The position numbers were made by a program, and so were the translations under genes. Source: Aquamicrobium sp. (GTDB lineage Bacteria; Pseudomonadota; Alphaproteobacteria; Rhizobiales; Rhizobiaceae). From it: a stretch of DNA of 64,000 nucleotides. The DNA is taken from contig JAHHDT010000006.1 in NCBI GenBank assembly GCA_019739225.1, positions 1 through 64,000 of the forward strand, in the 5' to 3' direction. This document shows, piece after piece, positions 46,878 through 57,657 of this stretch (its first letter is position 1; each line of letters begins with the position of its first letter). Under the pieces are notes generated by a model. It was given only the letters and a program-made list of their open reading frames with translations, had not been told where the DNA came from and made no database searches.

Positions 46878-46962
46878 GCCCAGGTGGCGGAATTGGTAGA
46901 CGCGCACGGTTCAGGTCCGTGTGCCGCGAGGCGTGGAGGTTCGAGTCCTCTCCTGGGCACCA
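46878..46962 (+). tRNA. tRNA-Leu(CAG), integration site of the element
   Basis: 85-nt class II tRNA: GCCCAGGTGGCGG start, anticodon arm with loop TTCAGGT (anticodon CAG), a variable arm, T arm GGTTCGAGTCC, acceptor 3' strand CCTGGGC and an encoded ACCA end. The last 17 nt are part of the 42-bp direct repeat that bounds the integrated element, so the element keeps the tRNA intact. Confidence 0.95.
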
Positions 46963-46987
46963 TCCGGTCCAAGCTGCCAAGTGGACC
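46946..46987. repeat. attL, 42-bp direct repeat (left copy)
   Basis: Starts TCCTCTCCTGGGCACCATCC, covers the tRNA 3' end (to 46962) and 25 bp beyond, ending AAGTGGACC. Identical over 42 bp to 57616-57657; bases on each side differ. Confidence 0.95.
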
Positions 46988-47048
46988 AAATACTTAAGCC
47001 CCTTCAGAGTGTTGCGCTCGCCCTTGTGTGTTACAAAGGCGTGCAACA

Positions 47049-48683
47049 ATGCTCTATCGGCTGGTCCGACCCATGCAGCGCAAAGGCTCCTCTAAGCATC
47101 AATTTGTCCAGCGCATACCGGCTGACGTGAAGCCCCGCGCGGCTGGCCTCAAGCTGGAGGTGCCGGTGGGCGGGGACGTAGTTCCCCTTACCATCTCACC
47201 GAAAGCGGAGGCCGTGAGGCTGTCCTTGCGCACCTCTTTGTCATCGGAGGTCAAGGTACGGCAGGCACAGGTGGCGGGTTATCTAGAGACTGTGTGGGAA
47301 GCGCTGCGCAATAGCCGTCCGTTGCCTCTTTCGCATCGCCAAGCCGTTGCCCTTGCGGGTGAGCTTTACCGGGCTTGGGCGGATGATCGGAAGGCAAAGG
47401 CGTGGCCTACAGCTACCCATATGCCGGACGGCTCGTGGCAGATCGAACACGATGCCGACGATGACCCGGAGGTATGGGAGGCGGCGACGATGGCGCTAGC
47501 GGGGGACTCCGCAGATGCACTTGACCGCGCTCTGGGTCCAATCGCTGGTCGCCTGTTGCTGCGCAAGGGTATCCATGATGTCGATGCTCAGAGCCATGCC
47601 ATGCTGCTCCGGGAGTTTCGCCGGGCGCTCGTGGAGACACTTGAGGCCCGTAGCAGGCAGGCGAGCGGGGACTACTCCCCCGACCTCACTGCCGCACGGT
47701 TCCCCGACTGGGAAGCTCCAAGCCAACCGAAGCCGGCGCGGAGTGCCGCGAAGGTCTCGCTAACCGGACTCGTGGAAGACTGGTGGACGGAAGCGAAGGC
47801 GGCAGGACGCACGGTTAGCACCTATGAGAGCTACCGCAGCGTCTTCACACGCCTGGGCGACTTCCTCGGACATGACGATGCACAGATGGTCAGTCCCGCT
47901 GACCTCGTGCGCTTCAAGGACCACAGATTGGCTCAAGGGGTCAGCCCTAAGACGGTGGGAGATAGCGACCTGTCAGCGTTCCGGTCGGTCTTCCAATGGG
48001 CAGTGGACAACATCAAGGTGGACACGAACCCAGCCGAAAAGGTCCGGGTAAAACGCCCGAAGCAAACCGTGCGGCGCTCCAAGGCGTTCACGGCGGACGA
48101 GGCAAAAGCCATCCTCTCCCACTCCCTTGGCCACACGCGTGGCAGGGAGCACGCCAAGACCTATGCCGCGAAGCGCTGGGTGCCGTGGCTGTGTGCCTAT
48201 ACCGGTGCGAGGCTAGGGGAGATGGTTCAGCTACGAAAGCAGGACTTGCGCCAAGAGGGAGATATTTGGGTGGTCACCATCACCCCGGAAGCCGGCACCG
48301 TGAAGGACAAGGAGGTCCGCGAAGTGGTACTCCATACCCACCTCATAGACCTCGGCTTTCCCGCGTTCGTGAAAGAAGCGCCAGCCGGTTATCTGTTCCT
48401 AGATGTTGCGTCAGGCAAAGACATCCGGGGCCGCTGGCGGACCACCAAGAACCGCGTTCGGGAGTTTGCGCGAGAGGTGGTCAAGGACAGCGACGTTGCG
48501 CCAAACCATGGCTGGCGTCACCTGTTCAAGACTGTGGGGCGTGAGGCTGGCATCGGGGATAGCGTGTTGGATGCCATATGCGGCCACGCTGCAAAGACCA
48601 TTGGCGGCAGCTACGGGGATGTGACGCTGAGGACGCAGGCGGATGCGATGGCGCGTTTTCCGAGGTTCGAGGTGAAGGCCTGA
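47049..48683 (+). CDS. int: Tyrosine-family site-specific integrase
   Basis: 544 residues from ATG 47049; GTG 47028 is an upstream alternative. N-terminal arm-type region (QFVQRIPADVKPRAA), then a SAM-like core-binding domain (LVEDWWTEAKAAGRTVSTYESYRSVFTRLGDFLG, about 235-270) and the catalytic domain with YTGARLGEM (Arg), HGWRHLFKT (HxxR) and GHAAKTIGGSYG holding the His and the likely nucleophile Tyr. It lies directly inside attL and reads away from the tRNA, the normal place for an integrase. It should recombine the tRNA-Leu 3' end with the phage-type site. Confidence 0.95.
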   Translation: MLYRLVRPMQRKGSSKHQFVQRIPADVKPRAAGLKLEVPVGGDVVPLTISPKAEAVRLSLRTSLSSEVKVRQAQVAGYLETVWEALRNSRPLPLSHRQAVALAGELYRAWADDRKAKAWPTATHMPDGSWQIEHDADDDPEVWEAATMALAGDSADALDRALGPIAGRLLLRKGIHDVDAQSHAMLLREFRRALVETLEARSRQASGDYSPDLTAARFPDWEAPSQPKPARSAAKVSLTGLVEDWWTEAKAAGRTVSTYESYRSVFTRLGDFLGHDDAQMVSPADLVRFKDHRLAQGVSPKTVGDSDLSAFRSVFQWAVDNIKVDTNPAEKVRVKRPKQTVRRSKAFTADEAKAILSHSLGHTRGREHAKTYAAKRWVPWLCAYTGARLGEMVQLRKQDLRQEGDIWVVTITPEAGTVKDKEVREVVLHTHLIDLGFPAFVKEAPAGYLFLDVASGKDIRGRWRTTKNRVREFAREVVKDSDVAPNHGWRHLFKTVGREAGIGDSVLDAICGHAAKTIGGSYGDVTLRTQADAMARFPRFEVKA

Positions 48684-48727
48684 GGAGGCGGAGGAGCGCC
48701 CGCCACGCTCCCCCATCTACCTACCCG

Positions 48728-51700
48728 CTAAGGGCTTGCCGGCTGCCGCACCGGACCCAAGAGCGCATCAAGCTCCGCCCCGAAGGACTTCCCGACTTGC
48801 CCAAGCGAAGGCTCGGGCTGCTGCCGCCTCGCCGGCTGGCCTCGATAGTGCTCAACCACCTTCAACTGCTTCGCCTGCACTGCCTCCCGAACTGCTGGGT
48901 CGCGGAGGAGGAAGCGGAACGCCGCCTTTCGGTATCGCTCTATGGGACCATGAAGCATCCACAGCTTGGTCCCCTTCGTGGCCATGTCCCCATCCGGCGC
49001 TCGCCTGTAAGCGTCCGACGCCATCACCTTCGCTACGATGCTCTTGAGGCTGGGCTGGCGCTCTGTCATTTGGCCGGCTAACTCCTGATAGACCGCGTAG
49101 GCATTTCGTCCGGTCCATCCGGGGAGTGCCTGCGAGCCTGCAAGCGTGACATCCCTCAAGTCCACGCCATTGTGGTTCGGGCTGGGCCGCGAGATGGTTG
49201 ACCCATTCTCCACCGCCAACCGGGTCACTTCTAGGTCCACCGCGTCATACTCTTTGTTGGACCACAGGCCTTTGCGCGTCGTTATGGGGTCCCCGAAGGG
49301 ATCATAACGCGCCGGCACGTTCTCGCTGAGCCCGGGAATGGTGGCCATGAGCTTGTCCGTAAGGTCCCGCGCTTCGCGTAGGTACGGGTCCGTGTTGAAC
49401 TGGCGCTGAGCCGCCGAGAAGGGCAGGAAGTTCGCCGCCACGCTCGACCCAAACGAGGACCTGTCCGGCTCCATGAAGAAGTCCAACGCCTGGCTGATCC
49501 CCATCAGGAACGTCTTGTTCTTCATCTGCGCCGCAGCGGAGAGCTTCAGGGCATCGAAGATCGCTCCCGCCTCGGAGCTATCCTCGGTCTCAGGAGCCGC
49601 CGTCATGACATCCTGCAAGTCAGCGATGATGCCGAACGGTAGCGCAACGGGGTCATAGCGGTTGTAGGGGATGGAGGTCACTGACCCGTCCGCATTCTCC
49701 CACCACACCGAATAGGGCACTCCGCCTGCTGCCATCCACGCTTCCCTTGCTCGGGGGTCTCGTGGTCCTGCGCCTGTGAGCCGGCCTTGCGATACCAGGT
49801 AGGCAGCGGACCCGAGGAACAACGCACCAAGCGACATTTGCCCTACCGCCTGCCTCTGGGCTTCCACCCCCATCTCGCCCCGGAGCATCTGGCGATATTC
49901 CATCTGGAGAACATTGAGGCCCGGCGTGAGCTTCCACCCGTACCGCATCACGTTGACCGGGGTCTTAACGAAGGGGAGCACAAGGCGAAGGCTTGGGTGC
50001 TGCGATACGGCTAGCTGTGCGGTCCTGCCAAGCGTCCCCGGGTTGAGGTCCTGCTGGAAGGTCGCGATGTTCGCCTCACGCAGCGCGTTGGCGTTGACCC
50101 CACGGCCCTCTACGTCGAAGGCAGCATGGGTCTTGTCCGTCACGTACTGCTTGACGAAGTCCTCAAGGTCCTTGCCCGATAGCCCGGTCTGCTGGCCCTT
50201 GTTGACTGCCTCCCAGTAAGCCCCGGCCATCACCTTGGAGCGGTAGACGGTCTGCTTCACCAGCTCGTCCACCGTGCCGAGCACCCGCGTGGGCACCCCG
50301 ATGGCCTGAGCCGGCATCGCGGCAAACACGTTGTAGAGCATATTGGGCGTGCTGTCCCACTTCTTGAAGGGGATCATTGCGCCTGCCCTCTCGCCCGCAT
50401 CGTTGCCGGCATAGACCTCCGAGCGGTGGGGGGTGATGATGCTGTCGTTCTTGAGGAAAGCCTTGGTGGCGTTCCTGAAGCCCTCCGTGAAGGCGTGGCC
50501 CATATAGGTATACTGGGTGACGCTCTCCTTGAGGATCGCCCTGCTATTGGTGCCCTTCACGGCATCCATCACGACTGACCCGATGATACGCTCAAGGGGC
50601 CTCACGCCGACCATATAGGCGTTGGTGGTGGCGTTGATAAACTGGGTCATCGGGCCGGACACGAGGTTGTTCACGTAGACGAAGGACGCGAAGTCCACCA
50701 CCTTGGAGAACATCGAGCCATTGACCAGCCGCGCCATGTTCCTCGGGTCGCCCTTGGTGCTGAAGATAAGCTCCGCCAGCGCGTCCCCGTCGAGACCCTT
50801 CAGGGCTTCCACCTGCTTGGGGTCAATCTTGAACTCGCCACGCATCCGCCTCAGGCTCCGGCCCGCGTTGGACGACATGGACTTTGCGGCACCATAGACG
50901 GAAGACGCGAGGCTGAGCCGCTGGCGCAGTTCCTCCATCGCCATATCCTTCGAGCCAGCCCCGGAGAAGTCCCCGAGGTTGATCCGTGCGGCCAGCGCGT
51001 AGGCGTCCTGAAACATCTTGTTGGCCACGAGGTAGCCGGCTTCCATGTTGGCCACCACCGAGGCGGCATCACGGCCGGCCTTCTGGACCATCCCGAGGAG
51101 AAGCGCGGGGTCATCGTCAAAGAGCTTGGCCCTCTGGCGAACCATGCTGTCCACCCGGGCGTCCGACATGATGTCCCCACCCTTCAGGGCGTCCAAGCGT
51201 TCCTCTGCGGCATCCACCACGCGGGCCATGAAGTCGTCCACGTCCGCCTCGGTGTTGAGCTTGCGGTACGGGATGCCTTCCCCCTTGCCGAACGTATGGC
51301 CGGCCTCAATGGCCTGATACCACCCGCCGTGCCTGGAGATCGCCTCCGCGTCTGCCTCCATGCCTGAGAGCACCGCAGCGGTATCCTCGTCATCGAACTT
51401 GATGCCGGGCTTGGCGGTTGGCTTGGGGCCTTCCGTGCCGGCCTGCTGCATGGCCTCGGTGGGAGAGGAGACTACCTCGACTGGGACTTCTTCGGCTGCT
51501 GCCCCTTGAGTGCCTGTCGAAGCATCCTCTCGAATAGCTTCGGGCTCGCGAAGTGTTCCGGCTTCAGGCTCTCTACGGCCTGCCGAAGGTTCCGCTGCGC
51601 CCTCTTGCGAGCTAACTCCGAGGCCGCCATCGCCGCTTCCTGTATCTCCCGGGGCCACCTCGCCAAGGCCTTCAGCACCTCCCTCTGGTATGGCTGAAGG

Positions 51701-52630
51701 GGCGTCGGGCTCACCATCTGGGCGAACTGTTCCAGGCTCGGAGGATTGCTCTGCGGCGATTGCGTCACTGGCTTCCTTCTCCATCCTCGCCGCTTCCTCA
51801 GCGGCCTTCTCCATGTCACCCTTGCGCAGGTGCTTCCAGATGCGCCCGGCACCCACGAAGACACCCATCAAGGTGCTGTCCAGCGCGATGCTCTCAAAGG
51901 CTGCCTTCATGCGACCCTCGGCGGCACTGTCCTCGGGGTCGGCAGCGAGCCAGGCATTGAGCGGGTTGGCGAGAGCGGTGTCCTGTATGACGTTGCTCAG
52001 GCGCTCCTCGTGGGGGTCGAACGCAATGGCACCCGCCAAGGCCGCCTGCCCCATCTCCACCGCCACCACGCCCTTCTTCGAGGAACCCAGCGTGGCCAGC
52101 CCAGCGCCCACCCAAGGCAGCGCTGCGGCAGCCGTGCGGAGTTTCCCGAGGCCGATCATTGCGGTAGCGAACTGGGCCACCTCAGCCGAGAAGCCGTCGA
52201 AGATGCTCTCCTGCTGCCGACGCTCTACGGTGTCCTCGACGTTGGCGCGGAACTGCGAGCGGTCGTCCTCAGGGGTGTCGCCAAAGAGGAAGTCCTTGGT
52301 CTCGAAGACGGACTTGAGGGCTCCCCCTGCGATGGCGTCGAGGCCCGAGGCGTCCCCTAGGCCCGGCTCCTCGGCGGGAGGCTGGTCGTAAGGGGTGCCA
52401 TCAGGGCGTGTCTCACCGGGTGCAGGGACAGCAAGACCACTGTCGCCCGGCACTATGCCAGCACTGGCTGCCAACTCCCCCACAGGCGTAGACCCCATAG
52501 CCCCAAGGTCCAGCTCCAAGGCTTCCGAAGGAGCCGCATTACCGGCGTCCTGTTGGGTGGGCTGCCCTTGGGGTTGCTCGGGGAGTGGAGGAAGGTTCTG
52601 GAGGAGGCGGTCAAATTCCCTTTGGTCCAC
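48728..52630 (-). CDS. 1300-aa phage-type large polyvalent / internal-virion-like protein
   Basis: GTG 52630 with AGGAGG 7 nt upstream, a strong site. Layout: residues 1-110 Gln/Pro-rich and disordered; 130-260 helical with small hydrophobic patches; 260-300 charged coil; about 290-395 a Gly/Glu/Pro linker; 400-640 helical; then a core with VNNLVSGPMTQFINATTN (about 655), LPFVKTPVNVMRYGWK (about 890), GPRDPRAREAW and YNRYDPVALPFG (about 960-990). These core stretches resemble the large polyvalent or DNA-ejection proteins of tailed phages. Such proteins are packaged in virions and delivered with DNA. No other virion gene is present in the element. An ORF in the +1 frame overlaps the linker. 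Confidence 0.8.
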   Translation of the reverse strand: MDQREFDRLLQNLPPLPEQPQGQPTQQDAGNAAPSEALELDLGAMGSTPVGELAASAGIVPGDSGLAVPAPGETRPDGTPYDQPPAEEPGLGDASGLDAIAGGALKSVFETKDFLFGDTPEDDRSQFRANVEDTVERRQQESIFDGFSAEVAQFATAMIGLGKLRTAAAALPWVGAGLATLGSSKKGVVAVEMGQAALAGAIAFDPHEERLSNVIQDTALANPLNAWLAADPEDSAAEGRMKAAFESIALDSTLMGVFVGAGRIWKHLRKGDMEKAAEEAARMEKEASDAIAAEQSSEPGTVRPDGEPDAPSAIPEGGAEGLGEVAPGDTGSGDGGLGVSSQEGAAEPSAGRREPEAGTLREPEAIREDASTGTQGAAAEEVPVEVVSSPTEAMQQAGTEGPKPTAKPGIKFDDEDTAAVLSGMEADAEAISRHGGWYQAIEAGHTFGKGEGIPYRKLNTEADVDDFMARVVDAAEERLDALKGGDIMSDARVDSMVRQRAKLFDDDPALLLGMVQKAGRDAASVVANMEAGYLVANKMFQDAYALAARINLGDFSGAGSKDMAMEELRQRLSLASSVYGAAKSMSSNAGRSLRRMRGEFKIDPKQVEALKGLDGDALAELIFSTKGDPRNMARLVNGSMFSKVVDFASFVYVNNLVSGPMTQFINATTNAYMVGVRPLERIIGSVVMDAVKGTNSRAILKESVTQYTYMGHAFTEGFRNATKAFLKNDSIITPHRSEVYAGNDAGERAGAMIPFKKWDSTPNMLYNVFAAMPAQAIGVPTRVLGTVDELVKQTVYRSKVMAGAYWEAVNKGQQTGLSGKDLEDFVKQYVTDKTHAAFDVEGRGVNANALREANIATFQQDLNPGTLGRTAQLAVSQHPSLRLVLPFVKTPVNVMRYGWKLTPGLNVLQMEYRQMLRGEMGVEAQRQAVGQMSLGALFLGSAAYLVSQGRLTGAGPRDPRAREAWMAAGGVPYSVWWENADGSVTSIPYNRYDPVALPFGIIADLQDVMTAAPETEDSSEAGAIFDALKLSAAAQMKNKTFLMGISQALDFFMEPDRSSFGSSVAANFLPFSAAQRQFNTDPYLREARDLTDKLMATIPGLSENVPARYDPFGDPITTRKGLWSNKEYDAVDLEVTRLAVENGSTISRPSPNHNGVDLRDVTLAGSQALPGWTGRNAYAVYQELAGQMTERQPSLKSIVAKVMASDAYRRAPDGDMATKGTKLWMLHGPIERYRKAAFRFLLRDPAVREAVQAKQLKVVEHYRGQPARRQQPEPSLGQVGKSFGAELDALLGPVRQPASP
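51472..51717 (-). CDS. Possible overlapping gene inside the linker of the polyvalent protein
   Basis: 81 codons from ATG 51717 in the +1 frame of the large gene, opposite its residues of about 304-386. The product starts MVSPTPLQPYQREVLKALA and continues with amphipathic helices rich in Glu, Gln, Lys, Leu and Arg, with a single Gly and no Cys, ending KKSQSR. The main frame here is low-complexity Gly/Glu/Pro linker. That contrast is what overprinting would give. No strong ribosome site precedes the ATG, so expression is uncertain; it could also mark a shifted frame in an ancestor of the large protein. Confidence 0.35.
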   Translation of the reverse strand: MVSPTPLQPYQREVLKALARWPREIQEAAMAASELARKRAQRNLRQAVESLKPEHFASPKLFERMLRQALKGQQPKKSQSR

Positions 52631-52995
52631 CCTTAGGCCTCCTCAGCGCCATCAATGTCTAAGAGGTTCCGCAGCCCCAATTGGTCCACGACACTCGTGC
52701 AGGGGCGGGACCTGCTCGTCTGTGTCTCGTCATCTGAGCGGCGCTCCTGCTTTTCACTGGAAGCTGGAAAGCGTGAGGTGGTTGGTCGATTATCGGGCAA
52801 GGATTTTCCTTCCTGCGATTATGGCAAAGCGAGGGAGGGCCGCCGCCGCTGAATGCGTGCGAGGCGCTTCTCTCAGTTGATTGTTTGGGGGTCGTGCGGC
52901 CTTACCTGTGCAAATGCACACTCCTAGTGCGTGCACAGGGCCAGTGCTTTAAGCCGCTCTAAGTCCTGGGAGGAGGAGGTGGAAACTCCCCGGCT
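52631..52995. other. 365-bp gene-free region before the polyvalent gene, with an operator-like repeat
   Basis: No convincing ORF on either strand; the plus-strand open frames here are antisense shadows that run on from the large gene. It probably holds the promoter of the polyvalent gene (minus strand) and a structured site at 52905-52939. I saw no clear terminator for the ParB-like gene, which ends at 52996, so read-through into the large gene is possible. Confidence 0.6.
52905..52939. repeat. Nested inverted repeats, candidate operator of the element
   Basis: Outer arms CCTGTGCA (52905-52912) and TGCACAGG (52932-52939). Inside is TGTGCA-AA-TGCACA (52907-52920), a perfect 6-2-6 palindrome, and a further GTGC-GT-GCAC. 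It sits between the ParB-like gene and the large gene, where a regulator of late-type expression could bind. Confidence 0.6.
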
Positions 52996-53784
52996 CTAAT
53001 ACTCAGCGTCACCGCGATCCGGGCGGTATTCTTCAAGGCACATCACCAAGTCCTCCAAGCGCCGCCCGAAGTGTGTCGCGATGGCCCTTGCGGCAATCTC
53101 AGGGTTCTTCGTGAGCTTGTCCGCAAAGGTCCTCGCCAGGGTGTTCGCATAGTCCTGCGCCACGCTTTCCATCCACTGCGCCCGCTCCTCCTCCGTCTGA
53201 TCCTTTCGGCTCTCCATACGGTCCAGCGCCATCGCCTCCGCCCAGGTTTCCACGTGGTCAGCCGCAGCGCCTAATCGGCCTAGCACCCTGCGCATGTTCG
53301 CCACGGTGCCCGTTGAGCAATTAGCGGCCTTTGCAATCTGTGCCTTGGAGTGCTGCCCCAAGCGAACATAACGCCACGCTGCGTTTTGCCGCTCGCATCG
53401 GGCCATGGGGAGCTTGGTGATAGAGTTGGCAGCACATGCCTCCAAGGCCGCTGCCGTTACGGTCCCTTCGAACTCGACAACCGGGACCTCCGCGAAGCCA
53501 GCTCTATGGAACGCCTCAAGCCTGTGGTGGCCGTCCACTACGATCACCTTGCGCCCTACCCTCAGCACCAGCAGGGGCGGCATCTGGCTTCCGTCGCGCA
53601 ACGCCCTCGCCATGTCATCCACATGGGATGGGTCCATAGCGCGAACCTGAAAGACCTCCGGCAAGGTGGTGATGGTGGTGAGCGGGAGCGAGGCAGGCAA
53701 AGGCTCGGTTACTAGGCTAGACCCCTCCGCTGCCTCCGCCTCCAGGCTGGCAAGAAGTCGGGCAAGTTCGAAGCTCTCCACCAT
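52996..53784 (-). CDS. ParB/Srx-fold protein with HTH (no ParA partner)
   Basis: 262 residues from ATG 53784, overlapping the previous stop (TGATG), so translationally coupled. ParB-like N-domain: PEVFQVRAMDPSHVDDMARALRDG, then VVDGHHRLEAFHRAGFAEVPVVEFEG where the GHHR motif would bind nucleotide (CTP in true ParB). A central HTH follows: HSKAQIAKAANCSTGTVANMRRVLGRL. The C-terminus is helical. No ParA or parS is visible. On an integrated element it could be a DNA-binding regulator or help package or segregate element DNA; the role is open. Confidence 0.82.
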   Translation of the reverse strand: MVESFELARLLASLEAEAAEGSSLVTEPLPASLPLTTITTLPEVFQVRAMDPSHVDDMARALRDGSQMPPLLVLRVGRKVIVVDGHHRLEAFHRAGFAEVPVVEFEGTVTAAALEACAANSITKLPMARCERQNAAWRYVRLGQHSKAQIAKAANCSTGTVANMRRVLGRLGAAADHVETWAEAMALDRMESRKDQTEEERAQWMESVAQDYANTLARTFADKLTKNPEIAARAIATHFGRRLEDLVMCLEEYRPDRGDAEY

Positions 53785-54332
53785 CAATAGCTCTCGGGTG
53801 GCTCTATGCCCTCTCTGAGCATATCCAGGCGCTTTAGTCCGGCCTTCGCTTCCTCGGCACACCTTGCAACCGCAGCAATCTCATCCCCGGTGCCGGGCCT
53901 TCTGCCCGAGGTGGTGATGCCTCTCCGCCCCAACTCCTCGTCCATGCGCATAAGGTGATCGCGGTTCGCGAGCGGGGTCTTGCCGTCCTTGTTCGTATAG
54001 CCTTTTGCCCGGCGCTCCTCGCGGCTGACATTGAGCGGCCCCGGATATGCCGCGTTGCCGTGGTAGTGCTCCTGCCTTGAGACCACCTCCAGGTGAGCCC
54101 CATCGGGCAAGAGGTGGGCACAGTGCATTATGGCTGCGTAGTGGCAATCCTCGCCTTCGCTCACCCGCACCGACTGGCGTTCATCAAGGACGACATCGCG
54201 GTGCTCGCCTGAGGGCAAAACAAGGCGGTAGGCGAAGATGCCCCCGGACTCCCAGCGCTTGCCCTCAGGGTCTTGGGAAATGGCGAGATACAGGGTGTGC
54301 TTGGTCGATATGCTGGCCTCTAGGGCTGGCAT
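53784..54332 (-). CDS. RNase-H-fold protein without the catalytic acids
   Basis: 182 residues from ATG 54332, with AGAGGA about 8 nt ahead. The strand order follows RNase HI: TLYLAISQDP, GGIFAYRLVLPSGEHRDVVL, DCHYAAIMHCAHLL, AHLEVVSRQEHYHG, then RRAKGYTNKDGKTPLANRDH with LMRMDEEL, which lines up well with RNase HI [20 protein letters not shown] and QRLDAAL. The four acids (Asp10, Glu48, Asp70, Asp134 in E. coli) fall on non-acidic residues: the Glu48 place is Cys, and the others are Ile/Ser, Ser/Arg and Ala/Val. It may bind RNA-DNA hybrids without cutting. Coupled to the ParB-like gene. Confidence 0.65.
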   Translation of the reverse strand: MPALEASISTKHTLYLAISQDPEGKRWESGGIFAYRLVLPSGEHRDVVLDERQSVRVSEGEDCHYAAIMHCAHLLPDGAHLEVVSRQEHYHGNAAYPGPLNVSREERRAKGYTNKDGKTPLANRDHLMRMDEELGRRGITTSGRRPGTGDEIAAVARCAEEAKAGLKRLDMLREGIEPPESY

Positions 54333-54492
54333 TGAGTTGTCCTCTTGTCGTGTGGTTGAGTTGGTGGAGGATGGGTGACCAAGTACCAGCGGCACCGATC
54401 TAATCACGCGGGCGATGGGAACCGCTCCTTCGTGCCGTCACGGCGGCTTTGAGCCTCGTTTTCTCACAAGTGTGCGCTATTGCCGATGCCGG

Positions 54493-54720
54493 CTACGAGG
54501 CGGCCCGCAGGAGCCGCTTCGCGGCGCGGTCTATGAGGCGGGAATACTCCTCTAGGTCTTCTTGAGCGCAGCGGCACTTGGCATTTCGGGCTTTCTCCCA
54601 GCCTCCCGTCCGCTCCCACAAGCGCCACCTTATCTCCATAAAGCGGCTAAGGTCCTCAGCCGGCACCCCAACGATGGCCGCAAGCATTTCATCAGGGCTT
54701 TGGTCAGCTTGATGCTGCAT
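54493..54720 (-). CDS. Small unrecognised protein of the element
   Basis: 75 residues from ATG 54720, with GGGAG ahead. Helical and charged: ADQSPDEMLAAIVGVPAEDL, then RWRLWERTGGWEKARNAKC and a Cys pair (CRC) before EEYSRLIDRAAKRLLRAAS. No family recognised. Same strand as the ParB-like and RNase-H-like genes, with 160 bp between this stop and the next start. Confidence 0.6.
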   Translation of the reverse strand: MQHQADQSPDEMLAAIVGVPAEDLSRFMEIRWRLWERTGGWEKARNAKCRCAQEDLEEYSRLIDRAAKRLLRAAS

Positions 54721-54941
54721 GGCGCTCTCTCCCGGTTGCGTTCTGGAAACGCATGGCGCATCTGAGGCGAGAAATTCAACGATAATCCACCAGCGCCCCC
54801 TGTGGCCGAAACAGGGAGTCAATGCGCCAAAGGCCGGCATCGGATCGTGGATTTACTCGTGTGGGCCGGGCACACCCGTGGGAGAGGCGTGGGCTTCTTG
54901 TAACCAAACGTGATCGGTACGGGTCGGTCGAGCGGCAGCCG

Positions 54942-55235
54942 CTATGGCTCGCGCTTCGCTTTTACCCGTGCCTCTCGTAGCCCTTGGAAATCGATGCCGA
55001 TGATATGGGAAGCCTTTGTGGCGTCCTGCCCAACTGTGGCTTTAACCGGCTCTCGTCGTCTCCCCCTCCCGTCGATAAATGCTTGAAGGTCCTCCGGGGT
55101 ATAACGTCGCCGCTCCCTCTGCGTCCCGGCACCCATGCTGACATACCGTATCTCGCCGGCATTGGTTAGCTTGCGGAGGTGCTTCGTAGACACCGAAAGG
55201 AAGTCGGCGGCCTCCTGAGGCGTCATCAAGGACAT
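54942..55235 (-). CDS. Excisionase-like helix-turn-helix protein
   Basis: 97 residues from ATG 55235. The N-terminus MTPQEAADFLSVSTKHLRKL, with the wing TNAGEIRYVSMGAGTQRERRRYTPEDLQAFI, is the HTH_17/MerR-like excisionase fold. It is the likely recombination directionality factor for the tyrosine integrase, or a repressor. The C-terminal 40 residues are not conserved with the fold. Located mid-element rather than next to int. Confidence 0.8.
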   Translation of the reverse strand: MSLMTPQEAADFLSVSTKHLRKLTNAGEIRYVSMGAGTQRERRRYTPEDLQAFIDGRGRRREPVKATVGQDATKASHIIGIDFQGLREARVKAKREP

Positions 55236-55351
55236 AGCTCATCCCCTTGCTTTCTTCGTTTCGTATAGCATGCCGGAAGGCGGAAGGCACAATGAGAGAA
55301 GCCGAGGCGTTGCGGCCCCGGCCTTCCTCAAGTTAGACATAGCGCGGGTCG

Positions 55352-55933
55352 CTAAGTTTTCGCGCCGCGCTCCGCCCGCAGGATGCGGAACACACTGGCC
55401 CGACCAATGCCCAGCTCCGCCGCGATAGCGTCTCCCGTCATTCCCTCTGCCTTGAGGCGCAACACGTCTTCGGCCTTGGCGCGGGCAGTGGGAGCGCGGC
55501 CCTTGTATTTGCCCTCCGCCTTAGCCTTGGCGATGCCCTCGCGTTGCCGCTCAAGCATCAGCTCTCGCTCAAACTCGGCAATTGACCCCAGCAGGTTGAG
55601 CATCAGCTTGCCGGTGGGCGTGGAGGTGTCCAGGTTTATGGCGAGGATGCGCAACCCCACCCCCTTCCCCTTCAGGGTCTCCGTGATTGACACGAGGTCC
55701 GCCACCGAGCGGGCCAAGCGGTCCAGCTTGGTCACCACCAGCACGTCCCCTTCGCGGACCCATTCAAGGGCAGCCTCAAGCTGGGGCCGCTTGGCGGCAA
55801 CCGAGGAAATCTCCTCTCGGAAAACCTTGGTGCAGCCGGCCGCCTCTAGGTCGCGGAGCTGGGCTTTAAGCCCCGCCTTCTGGTCGATGGTGGAGGTTCT
55901 GGCGTATCCTATCAGGACTGCATTAGCGGCCAT
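55352..55933 (-). CDS. Hin/resolvase-type serine recombinase
   Basis: 193 residues from ATG 55933. Catalytic Ser in IGYARTSTIDQ (Ser about 14), then VVTKLDRLARSVADLV, LDTSTPTGKLMLNLLGSIAEFERELM and a C-terminal HTH (MTGDAIAAELGIGRASVFRIL). The protein looks intact. It could invert or resolve DNA in the element, but I could not find a pair of obvious crossover sites. Overlaps the upstream gene by 11 bp. Confidence 0.93.
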   Translation of the reverse strand: MAANAVLIGYARTSTIDQKAGLKAQLRDLEAAGCTKVFREEISSVAAKRPQLEAALEWVREGDVLVVTKLDRLARSVADLVSITETLKGKGVGLRILAINLDTSTPTGKLMLNLLGSIAEFERELMLERQREGIAKAKAEGKYKGRAPTARAKAEDVLRLKAEGMTGDAIAAELGIGRASVFRILRAERGAKT

Positions 55934-56348
55934 GGTGAGCCTCCCGGGTCAAACCGATTGCGATCCCTGCAAGCCGGCCGGTGAATGGACACCCGGCATC
56001 AGCAAGCACCAGCCTCAGGCCGGCGCGATCCGACTTGAAGGCTTGCCACTGCGAGAACACGTCGCGGACCTTTGAGGCGGCATAGAGGGGCGTCACGAGC
56101 GGCACTACGTCTGCTGCCCTATCTTCCACAAAGTCCGCAAAGGCGAGCGTCAGGCCTTCTGCTGGCGGAACGTCTCCACCAGTCTCCTCCCACATAGTGA
56201 GGTAATGGCGGAGGTCGCTGAGACAGTCGGGCGTCTCCGGTGCCGGTGCATCGGCCAAGGTGGTCTCTAGGAGGCCGGCCGGTATGGGGATGGTGGTCTG
56301 GACAGTATCGAATGTGAAGGTGTGCTTCGGCACGATAGCGAGGTGCAT
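55923..56348 (-). CDS. Unrecognised 141-aa protein, first gene of the leftward set
   Basis: 141 residues from ATG 56348 (MHLAIVPKHTFTFDT), with GGGAGA 6 nt upstream; ATG 56378 in frame has no ribosome site. Residues: LRHYLTMWEETGGDVPPAEG, AFADFVEDRAADVVPLVTPLYAAS and CPFTGRLAGIAIGLTREA. No signal or membrane segment, no family recognised. Overlaps the recombinase, so probably co-regulated. Nested inverted repeats lie just before its start. Confidence 0.65.
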   Translation of the reverse strand: MHLAIVPKHTFTFDTVQTTIPIPAGLLETTLADAPAPETPDCLSDLRHYLTMWEETGGDVPPAEGLTLAFADFVEDRAADVVPLVTPLYAASKVRDVFSQWQAFKSDRAGLRLVLADAGCPFTGRLAGIAIGLTREAHHGR

Positions 56349-56361
56349 GTGGTGTCTCCCG

Positions 56362-56397
56362 ATAGGATCATTGAACACAAGGACATTGTGATCCTAT
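56362..56397. repeat. Nested inverted repeats before the leftward gene set
   Basis: Outer arms ATAGGATCA (56362-56370) and TGATCCTAT (56389-56397), perfect over 9 bp. Inside, CACAA (56376-56380) and TTGTG (56386-56390) pair around GGACA. Located 13 bp before the 141-aa gene and in the divergent gap to the exported protein gene at 56549, the natural place for a switch operator. Confidence 0.68.
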
Positions 56398-56548
56398 AGT
56401 ATCAAAAATGTCAACCCCATTCTTATGAGACTGAAATGGCTGGCTTCTTGGGAGCCCGAGACAGACTCACATAAGCCTGCCCTAGTGAGACCGTTGCGCG
56501 GACGCAAAGCCCATGCTCTCCTTGGGGTGGGGAATGGGAGGGACGACA

Positions 56549-56896
56549 ATGAAGATGACTAGGGCCGTGGCCTTGGCGGTGTGTGCGATGAACGCGGGGC
56601 CGGCCTTTGCGTGGTGCTCTAAGCCATCCCTGTATGAGACCCCTCCTGACCCTCCTGCTGCTTACCACCGCCCAGACGTGCCTTACTGCCTTCGGGGCTA
56701 TTCGTACTCTCGGAGCCACACTTGCGACCAAGGGCAACTGGATAGCTACAGGCGGGACGTAGGCGAGTATATCGACAAGCTCAACGCGTACCTTAGGGAG
56801 TCGTCCACGTTTGCCCAGGCGGCCATCAACTATGCCAATGAGGCGCAGCGCTACGCAACGTGCGAGGCCGATGAGGTCAACAGCCAGCACCAATAA
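56549..56896 (+). CDS. Small exported Cys-containing cargo protein
   Basis: 115 residues from ATG 56549, with GGAGG 7 nt ahead. Signal peptide (residues 1-21, cleavage near AFAWCSK). The mature chain has four Cys (CSK, YCLRG, TCDQG, TCEADE) and an amphipathic helix (LDSYRRDVGEYIDKLNAYLR and on to EAQRYATC). Similar small exported proteins occur in rhizobia, without known function. On a satellite or prophage arm it could change the host surface, for instance as a superinfection-exclusion factor; that is inference. Confidence 0.75.
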   Translation: MKMTRAVALAVCAMNAGPAFAWCSKPSLYETPPDPPAAYHRPDVPYCLRGYSYSRSHTCDQGQLDSYRRDVGEYIDKLNAYLRESSTFAQAAINYANEAQRYATCEADEVNSQHQ

Positions 56897-57030
56897 GCAA
56901 GGGTGGCAGGGGTGGCCTTGCGCAAAATATCGGAGGGCCTAAGGGGGCACAGGGGGGAAACTCGCGTCAGCCGCCGCTTAGGTGACCTCTCGCATGGGGG
57001 ACCCCAAAATTCACTCGAGGAGGGTGGACA

Positions 57031-57516
57031 ATGAACGCAACTGTCACAGATGATAAGCCGCTTGCGATCAACATTGCGGCGTATATCACTATGTTCCCTA
57101 TGCTTGAGGCCGGTATTCAACTAATCTTTGAGCGGGCTGTAGGTGGTGACGGTACTTGGTCCGACTGCATCCTCCACCACGTCCAGAGCATCAGCACCCG
57201 CATCGACATTGTAGAAGACTTCACAAAGAACTGTTGCCGAGACAAGCAATTCGCTGCTGCGGTTATTCCTCTATTCCCCCGGATGCGTCAGGCTAACACC
57301 TATCGCAATCACTTAGCCCACGGCCTATTCATCACGGATCAAGGAAAAGCTCGGGTAGCTTCCAATATGTTTGCGCGAAAGAAGACCTTCCGGCAGGAAG
57401 ATATTGACGCCTCTGCGGTTCTCCAGCGCTTCCACGAGCTAGAGCAGTTGTATCTAGACCTGCTTCATGCCGTTGACGCGCTGCCGCCATATTTCCCTAG
57501 GGAGATGAAGCGATAG
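57031..57516 (+). CDS. Possible HEPN-domain protein (cargo at the right end)
   Basis: 161 residues from ATG 57031, with GGAGG about 8 nt ahead. All-helical pattern with TYRNHLAHGLF (residues 90-100), a match to the HEPN ribonuclease motif R(N)xxxH. Length and helix content fit a stand-alone HEPN domain. HEPN proteins often cut RNA in abortive infection and toxin systems. No nucleotidyltransferase (MNT) antitoxin partner is adjacent. It lies 99 bp inside attR, a typical place for defence cargo. The family match is by motif only. Confidence 0.6.
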   Translation: MNATVTDDKPLAINIAAYITMFPMLEAGIQLIFERAVGGDGTWSDCILHHVQSISTRIDIVEDFTKNCCRDKQFAAAVIPLFPRMRQANTYRNHLAHGLFITDQGKARVASNMFARKKTFRQEDIDASAVLQRFHELEQLYLDLLHAVDALPPYFPREMKR

Positions 57517-57615
57517 CAGCGAGACCGGAAAGGCGAAACAGAACTGTGTTACGCTCTCTCGACAACGCACCGATTTTCTCTTAGAAATCAACGTTCCCAT
57601 CTGAACCGGGCGCAA

Positions 57616-57657
57616 TCCTCTCCTGGGCACCATCCGGTCCAAGCTGCCAAGTGGACC
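57616..57657. repeat. attR, 42-bp direct repeat (right copy)
   Basis: Identical to 46946-46987, but here it is not part of a complete tRNA; only the last 17 nt of tRNA-Leu are present. Marks the right end of the element. Confidence 0.95.

What the first reader, a model, noticed from the sequence alone, without database searches (positions are those of the whole stretch)
46946..57657. A 10.7-kb tRNA-Leu element with one virion-type gene and no packaging or replication genes
The ends are exact: a perfect 42-bp repeat, one copy completing the tRNA. Inside there is an integrase, a serine recombinase, an excisionase-like protein, ParB-like and RNase-H-fold proteins, one 1300-aa polyvalent protein and two cargo genes. 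Known satellites (P4, PICI, PLE types) carry replication, packaging-redirection or capsid-size genes; I see none. This would be a new satellite layout if mobile, or a strongly reduced prophage if not.
Basis: partly seen in the sequence, partly recalled or inferred. Interest (0 to 1): 0.85.

Follow-up and report, generated by a model that had tools for sequence, protein, structure and literature searches.

The report
Phage-derived island with lone ejection gene
A 10.7-kb genomic island, cleanly inserted in a tRNA gene, carries one gene for the protein that short-tailed phages use to push DNA into cells and no other recognised phage-particle gene; similar islands sit in a range of related bacteria, which suggests a little-studied kind of phage parasite or phage-derived element.

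Summary
An intact element lies between 42-bp perfect repeats at tRNA-Leu(CAG). Its 1300-aa protein (BIG) is a T7-type internal virion (ejection) protein; no other virion or packaging gene is recognised. It is not unique: 21 non-redundant loci in Hyphomicrobiales carry BIG (broken in one) without T7-type capsid, tail-tube or intact terminase genes in the stretch read. Eight sisters are bounded by tRNA-derived repeats (11.8-20.3 kb); all eight have an integrase and a resolvase. In 397 genomes BIG occurs in 12, of which 10 lack tail tube B and capsid, whereas capsid without tail tube occurs in 0 of 4. BIG is under purifying selection. The resolvase, in 17 of 21 loci, was not found in six related phage records. 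Two sisters in different Rhizobiaceae are 94-97% identical where aligned, the chromosome beside them 82%: such elements move. T7-like phages of 45-48 kb with related integrase and BIG exist, and one sister keeps a terminase scrap, so the elements probably descend, repeatedly, from such phages. Best reading: satellite-like elements that keep an ejection protein for use with T7-like helpers. Descent and retention rest on comparison; helper use, packaging and excision are untested.

The parts
46878..46962 (+). tRNA-Leu(CAG), integration site
46946..46987 (+). attL: 42-bp repeat, first 17 nt are the tRNA 3' end
   Evidence: same start, 17 nt before the tRNA end, in six of eight bounded sisters
47049..48683 (+). 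tyrosine integrase (ATG start as in the sisters; the longer ORF begins at 47028)
48728..52630 (-). BIG: 1300-aa T7-type internal virion / ejection protein of the large polyvalent kind
   Evidence: phrog_6651 8.5e-36; phage homologues; Foldseek BFVD; selection; trees
52631..52995 (-). 365-bp non-coding stretch upstream of BIG; no unusual RNA fold, no phage-type promoter found
52996..53784 (-). ParB-like protein (likely start overlaps the preceding stop; longest ORF to 53862)
53784..54332 (-).
54493..54840 (-). small ORF of 115 aa or less, weak ribbon-helix-helix match
   Evidence: RHH_6 0.014, below cut-off
54942..55235 (-). excisionase / AlpA-like HTH_17 protein
55352..55933 (-). serine resolvase; 79-84% identical to those of L036, L038, L042, L048
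55923..56378 (-). 151-aa protein, overlaps the resolvase start; 39% identical homologue beside the resolvase in L036
56513..56896 (+). 127-aa probable secreted cargo protein; 47% identical homologues in L042 and L048
   Evidence: signal peptide by eye
57031..57516 (+). 161-aa cargo protein with an RNHLAH (R-x4-H) motif like HEPN ribonucleases (motif recalled; no family match above cut-off)
57616..57657 (+). attR: second copy of the 42-bp repeat

Best explanation
The stretch 46946-57657 is an intact integrative element of a recurring family in Hyphomicrobiales that descends from T7-like podophages with integrases. It lacks recognisable capsid, portal, tail, terminase and RNA polymerase genes and keeps site-specific recombination, a resolvase, small regulators, cargo and one virion gene, the gp16-like ejection protein BIG. 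Most likely it lives like a satellite. After entry of, or induction by, a T7-like phage it excises; BIG is made and packed into helper procapsids, alone or beside the helper's own protein; particles that hold element DNA then use it to pass DNA, and any effector domain in BIG's variable middle, across the inner membrane of the next cell. The resolvase would cut multimers back to single copies. Supported by sequence comparison: ends, content, descent, selection on BIG, recurrence, recent transfer of a sister. Inferred: helper dependence, packaging of BIG and DNA, the role of the resolvase.
For: Ends and content. BIG is an ejection protein: phrog_6651; 61 phage records by tblastn, 22 of the 30 rows listed annotated internal virion protein; Foldseek to viral internal virion and polyvalent proteins. 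Bounded sisters: G108 20.3, G179 19.3, G276 19.9, L036 11.8, L035 12.7, L024 13.9 kb, L042 15.0 and L048 15.3 kb. In the 21 loci no tblastn hit at E<=1e-5 to the capsid, tail tubes A and B or two small internal virion proteins of prophage L032, and none to its terminase in 20. In six bounded sisters 117 ORFs of 130 aa or more, BIG left out, gave no capsid, portal or terminase family among the 25 of 41 PHROG families listed. Sampling control in the same 397 genomes: BIG 12, tail tube B 5, capsid 4; BIG without both 10 of 12, capsid without tail tube 0 of 4, tail tube without capsid 1 of 5 (Fisher 0.008 and 0.028). dN/dS of BIG 0.085-0.43 in 11 pairs, ten between lone loci; cleanest, within close lone pairs, 0.085 (L042-L048) and 0.21 (L054-L049). 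Resolvase 17 of 21 lone loci versus 0 of 5 phages in the stretches held, p 0.002; 0 of 6 whole phage records. Mobility: L042 and L048 elements 94-97% identical where aligned, chromosome beyond the tRNA 82%. Exchange: integrase nearest L028, BIG nearest L036, whose integrase did not match at 1e-6. ART-like insert in BIG of L028, below Pfam cut-offs (DUF3990 7e-07, ART-PolyVal 0.0079). Defence-type genes in L036 (TIR, inside the element) and L039 (PDC-S49, beside the integrase).
Against: No helper, particle, excision or expression data. No T7-like tail tube B or capsid in the own genome, so no resident helper was seen. The promoter-like repeat of phages L132 and L092 gives no site above shuffles just before BIG in any element scanned; several scattered sites score above shuffles. 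In the BIG tree lone loci and full phages intermix (at least 7 changes forced), as repeated reduction would give; so dN/dS between far lone loci may partly reflect constraint in phage ancestors. L039 keeps a terminase scrap; L050 has tail tube B and BIG in pieces, L053 BIG in pieces, L176 tail tube B with only the end of BIG. The window element has no gp15 partner. A clean empty site was not seen: the nearest relative G004 has other genes there. The 397-genome control is small; 4 of the 10 lone-BIG genomes are one genus, BIG of G431 is broken and G173 is too divergent to be sure. Of the 17 resolvases 6 are only 31-34% identical to this one, and resolvases are common mobile genes.
Confidence: 0.45

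Rival explanations
1. It is the end stage of a T7-like prophage: deletion removed most genes, and integrase, resolvase and BIG remain by chance with no function for BIG.
For: T7-like phages with related integrase and BIG exist; lone and full loci intermix in the BIG tree; terminase scrap in L039; broken versions L050, L053.
Against: BIG is one open frame in this element and in most sisters and is under purifying selection, also within close lone pairs; BIG is the gene left alone more often than capsid or tail tube; resolvase shared by lone loci and not seen in the phages; gene order gp15-BIG is reversed in L042 and L048, not what deletion gives; recent transfer of a sister.
Confidence: 0.27
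2. BIG is a weapon, not a tool: made during infection by a T7-like phage, it is built into the phage's core in place of its own protein and spoils DNA ejection, so the element protects its host and is kept as a defence island that moves by other means.
For: BIG of lone loci pairs with BIG of particular phages: L038 with L091, L024 with L132, L041 with L092, Methylobacterium loci with L040; defence-type genes in L036 and L039 and an R-x4-H protein here (motif recalled).
Against: Six lone loci also keep the gp15-like partner, more than a spoiler needs; no test of interference.
Confidence: 0.18
3. BIG acts in the resident cell, for example at the inner membrane to exclude incoming T7-like ejectosomes, or as a toxin-like polyvalent protein of the element.
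For: Hydrophobic segments in 6 of 12 homologues scanned; ART-like insert in L028.
Against: Full-length ejection protein conserved rather than a membrane piece; ART-like match in 1 of the 3 BIG proteins scanned, none in the window's.
Confidence: 0.06

Closest known systems
T7-like podophages with BIG (IMG/VR records behind L088, L089, L091, L092, L132; prophages L040, L046, L052)
   Same: BIG at 34-45% identity; related integrase in two (41 and 47%)
   Different: In the stretches read they carry tail tubes and internal virion proteins, capsid in all but L040 and terminase in all but L089 and L046; T7-type RNA polymerase in three (L169, L170, L040); the five IMG/VR records are 43-48 kb; no resolvase of this kind found
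PICMI satellites of Vibrionaceae (PMC10803314, abstract and passages seen)
   Same: Small, no capsid-remodelling genes, integrase plus a regulator family that includes HTH_17, cargo, packaged by unchanged helper particles as multimers
   Different: PICMI has a primase and sits next to fis; this element has no primase, sits in tRNA-Leu and carries a virion gene
PICI, P4-like and PLE satellites (recalled; starts of abstracts seen in the listing)
   Same: Integrase, excisionase, cargo, att-bounded island
   Different: No primase, capsid-size or packaging-redirection family found
Mulch and Flayer satellite phages of Streptomyces (PMC10690885, abstract and outline seen)
   Same: Satellites that encode virion genes of their own
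   Different: They encode an encapsidation machinery; here only the ejection protein is kept
Large polyvalent proteins (PMC5512222, passages seen) and T7 gp16 (PMC8954989, passages seen)
   Same: Huge, mostly helical, injected protein kinds; ART-like insert in L028
   Different: The passages place phage polyvalent proteins near late virion genes; here the gene stands alone

Membership tests
Integrative element in a tRNA gene | Direct repeats bounding the element, one completing the tRNA, integrase next to one end | tested here: met
Integrative element in a tRNA gene | Empty site in a close relative | tested here: inconclusive
   G004 has both flanks but about 3.5 kb of other genes between them
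T7 gp16-like internal virion protein | Sequence relation to phage internal virion protein D | tested here: met
   phrog_6651, best stretch residues 647-1118; 61 phage records, up to 63% of the length
T7 gp16-like internal virion protein | N-terminal lytic transglycosylase of T7 gp16 | tested here: not met
   no Pfam domain; not conserved in P22 and Sf6 either (PMC8954989, passages); hydrolase domains on the three gp15-like partners scanned
Phage satellite (as in the abstract start of PMC13376191) | att-bounded, 7-20 kb, integrase and regulatory genes | tested here: met
Phage satellite (as in the abstract start of PMC13376191) | DNA replication genes | tested here: not met
   none recognised
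Phage satellite (as in the abstract start of PMC13376191) | No viral structural genes | tested here: not met
   BIG is an internal virion protein; some satellites do encode virion genes (PMC10690885, abstract)
Phage satellite (general) | Mobilised by a helper phage | not testable with these tools
   no particle or induction data
PICMI | Primase, and insertion next to fis | tested here: not met
   no primase family; inserted in tRNA-Leu
P4-like / PICI / PLE | Primase and capsid-size or packaging-redirection genes | tested here: not met
   none among ten proteins in Pfam, PHROGs, NCBIfam
Complete T7-like prophage | Capsid, portal, tail tubes, terminase, RNA polymerase | tested here: not met
   tail tube B and capsid absent from the whole genome

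The most novel reading that the evidence does not exclude
A class of phage satellites that carries its own DNA-ejection machinery: the element borrows the helper's shell, tail and packaging but loads its own ejection protein (with effector-like inserts in some members), so it controls how its DNA, or the helper's, enters the next cell; a dedicated resolvase restores single copies after packaging as multimers.
Probability: 0.37. Interest if true: 0.85.

Novelty: new variant of a known kind. Interest (0 to 1): 0.61.

Why it matters
Known satellites hijack a helper at the capsid, packaging or replication step. Elements that keep only the ejection gene would add DNA entry as a point of parasitism or interference, and would explain why a large virion protein is preserved alone in many genomes. 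The comparison gives pairs of element and phage lineages on which this can be tested directly. If the satellite reading fails, the family still points to selective retention of one virion gene after phage reduction, which asks for a function. In the held open-access library no paper joined 'phage satellite' with 'internal virion protein' and 'integrase', 'polyvalent protein' with 'internal virion protein', or 'phage satellites' with 'ejection proteins'; a broader two-of-three search listed 20 of 52 papers, none of those 20 titled on such elements. Most subscription papers and bioRxiv are not held.

Tried and rejected
Rejected: unique oddity (sisters found); pure search bias for BIG (controls with tail tube B and capsid); a structured RNA upstream of BIG (z -0.04; Rfam only the tRNA).

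Phage promoter before BIG: repeats are clear in phages L132 and L092. A weight matrix from them (five single-base shuffles per locus) gives sites above the mean shuffled maximum in several elements (for example L041, L042, L048, L051, L028, L053), but none of them just before BIG on its strand. In L024 a weaker site (score 6.3, shuffled maximum 9.4) lies 65 bp before BIG on its strand. A 21-base form of the motif occurs once in L041 exactly (it was taken from there) and once in L050 with three mismatches. Inconclusive, reported as negative.

Led nowhere: T7 gp16 in the PDB by fold (no hit at E<=0.001; model pLDDT 57.8) or by profile; viral scans with BIG alone and with the 182-aa protein; structure of the 182-aa protein; DNA-polymerase reading of the ~440-aa sister protein (motifs by eye; hhalign probability 0.2, E 0.32, against a two-row profile; no PDB match); joined-flank search for an empty site.

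Limits: 16 of 41 PHROG families were not listed. Absence of T7-type genes in the 21 loci rests on queries from one prophage (L032), without its portal; divergent forms can be missed. L022, L043, L044 and L045 end near contig ends, so absence there is weak; only nine elements, the window's included, were bounded. ORFs were called mechanically. Searches had no positive control. Rows left out of the second BIG tree: L030, L031, L043, L057, L066. Lone and full labels were set by me. The 21 lone loci are those left after dropping duplicates (L023, L025, L027, L029, L037 repeat L051, L053, L054, L049, L022; L032 repeats L052). Counted in neither class: L050 (decayed, with tail tube B), fragment L056, and the divergent L030, L031, L033, L034, L057. 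L044 counts as without resolvase (tblastn) although blastp gave one at 34%.
Full report
What is there. The window holds an element of 10,670 bp (repeat start to repeat start) between two identical 42-bp sequences; the left one supplies the last 17 nt of tRNA-Leu(CAG). Gene order: integrase (+); BIG, ParB-like, 182-aa, small ORF, Xis, resolvase, 151-aa (all -); two cargo genes (+) (order as read along the + strand). Family scans give integrase, resolvase, Xis and ParB-like names and, for BIG, only 'internal virion protein'; PADLOC gives two matches, both to the Xis protein.

What BIG is. It matches phrog_6651 at 8.5e-36, best stretch residues 647-1118. tblastn finds it in 61 phage records, chiefly marine T7-like phages, at 22-27% identity in the 30 rows listed, 22 of them annotated internal virion protein. 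In Roseobacter phage CRP-804 and in the prophage L032 it lies after capsid, tail tubes A and B and smaller internal proteins. A model of residues 101-1300 is nearly all helical but of low confidence (pLDDT 57.8, pTM 0.35). Foldseek lists internal virion and large polyvalent proteins of phages at E down to 2e-22 and nothing convincing in the PDB. T7 gp16, its functional model, inserts in the inner membrane and helps draw DNA in (PMC8954989, passages). The N-terminal transglycosylase of T7 gp16 is not recognised here.

Sisters. A search of 397 genomes of the order found BIG in 12. A scan of GTDB contigs gave 23 loci, 22 in Hyphomicrobiales by their titles and one in a Dependentiae MAG. After removal of duplicates, full phages, the decayed L050, the fragment L056 and divergent loci, 21 loci including the window's carry BIG (in pieces in L053). 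None shows a T7-type capsid, tail tube A or B, or the two small internal virion proteins at E 1e-5, and 20 of 21 no terminase. Six keep the gp15-like partner, with peptidase M15 or VanY domains in the three scanned. Eight sisters could be bounded by repeats of the tRNA 3' end, at tRNA-Leu, -Ser or -Phe. In six of the eight, and in the window, the repeat starts 17 nt before the tRNA end; in G179 19 nt; in L024 it is 72 bp and starts further inside. All eight have an integrase and a resolvase. In 27 BIG-bearing genomes searched whole, tail tube B (phrog_457) is strong in 6, weak (E 2e-4 to 8e-4) and away from BIG in 3 Labrys-type genomes, and absent in 18, the own genome included.

Is BIG kept on purpose? 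Because loci were found with BIG, I ran the same 397 genomes with tail tube B and capsid profiles. Tail tube B is in 5 and capsid in 4, all four among the five. BIG is without both in 10 of 12; capsid is without tail tube in 0 of 4; tail tube without capsid in 1 of 5 (Fisher p 0.008 and 0.028; without the divergent G173 0.011 and 0.036). Three of the five tail-tube genomes show no BIG, so BIG is if anything the harder to detect. The numbers are small; the ten fall in seven genera, four of them in one. dN/dS of BIG is 0.085-0.43 in 11 pairs; for far pairs synonymous changes are near saturation and part of the history may have been in phages, so the close lone pairs (0.085 and 0.21) weigh most.

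Descent. IMG/VR holds five 43-48-kb T7-like records with BIG at 34-45% identity; two also have the same kind of integrase (41% and 47%) and a T7-type RNA polymerase. In the BIG tree lone loci and phages intermix, with at least seven changes forced by well-supported branches. The integrase tree mixes them too. Aureimonas L039 retains 64 residues of a terminase. So these elements come from such phages, more than once, or have traded BIG with them. Against mere decay: a resolvase is in 17 of 21 lone loci and 0 of 5 phages in the stretches compared (and 0 of 3 prophages), and in 0 of 6 whole phage records (no positive control). A ~440-aa protein (phrog_4756-like) is in 12 of 21 and 0 of 5 (p 0.04; 0 of 6 records). 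In L042 and L048 the order of BIG and gp15 is reversed. These two elements are 94-97% identical where they align, against 82% for 5.6 kb of chromosome beyond the tRNA; the other flank does not align. The window element mixes an integrase nearest that of L028 with a BIG nearest, and a resolvase 84% identical to, those of Mesorhizobium L036, whose integrase differs.

Mechanism. Kept without other virion genes, an ejection protein is useful for DNA entry only together with a capsid and tail from elsewhere, hence a helper of T7 type. No such prophage is seen in this genome, so the helper would be an infecting phage. Whether BIG serves the element's own DNA (satellite-like) or spoils the phage (interference) is open. 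The gp15-like partner in six loci, resolvase, excisionase and recent movement favour the first; defence-type genes in L036 and L039 fit both. PICMI satellites travel as multimers in full-size capsids (PMC10803314, passages); four copies of this element come to 42.7 kb, near the size of the related phages, which gives the resolvase a plausible task. That is inference.

What argues against it. No helper promoter was seen before BIG, no clean empty site, no data on excision. Broken or partial members exist (L050, L053; L176). By a definition that asks for replication genes and no structural gene (PMC13376191, abstract start in the listing) this element is not a satellite; the claim here is that it works like one.

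Verdict. Ordinary parts in an unusual, recurring and selected combination. Novelty is judged from the calls listed and a full-text library that lacks most subscription papers.

Noticed in passing
L042 / L048 (with L083, L082): 15-kb elements at tRNA-Phe in Rhizobium sp. AAP43 and Peteryoungia aggregata, 94-97% identical where aligned, while the adjoining chromosome is 82%; BIG and gp15 in reversed order.
   Followed up: yes
L132 and L092: Repeated intergenic motif near ACCCTA(C/T)CACATTNCACACA, nine and seven copies, some just before capsid and BIG: probable phage RNA polymerase promoters.
   Followed up: partly
L048:16119-17405 and relatives (alignment A6): About 440-aa protein family (phrog_4756-like) in 12 of 21 lone loci; motifs by eye recall family A DNA polymerases, profile comparison does not confirm it.
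   Followed up: partly
L028:7915-12795; L036:13136-14131; L039:14371-16296: ART/DUF3990-like insert inside BIG of L028 (below Pfam cut-offs); TIR-domain cargo in L036; PDC-S49 defence candidate beside the integrase in L039.
   Followed up: partly
L050 and L176: Loci with tail tube B, broken or partial BIG, the 440-aa gene, a resolvase and an integrase: a larger or intermediate type.
   Followed up: no
L068:1063-4616 (G004): At the same tRNA-Leu of the closest relative lie genes that read as a sensor kinase and a response regulator (by eye) instead of the element.
   Followed up: no
L067 (Bordetella bronchiseptica plasmid pA) and L057 (Candidatus Dependentiae MAG): Distant BIG relatives (26-27%) in a 39-kb plasmid that carries phage structural genes and in a Dependentiae contig.
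   Followed up: no
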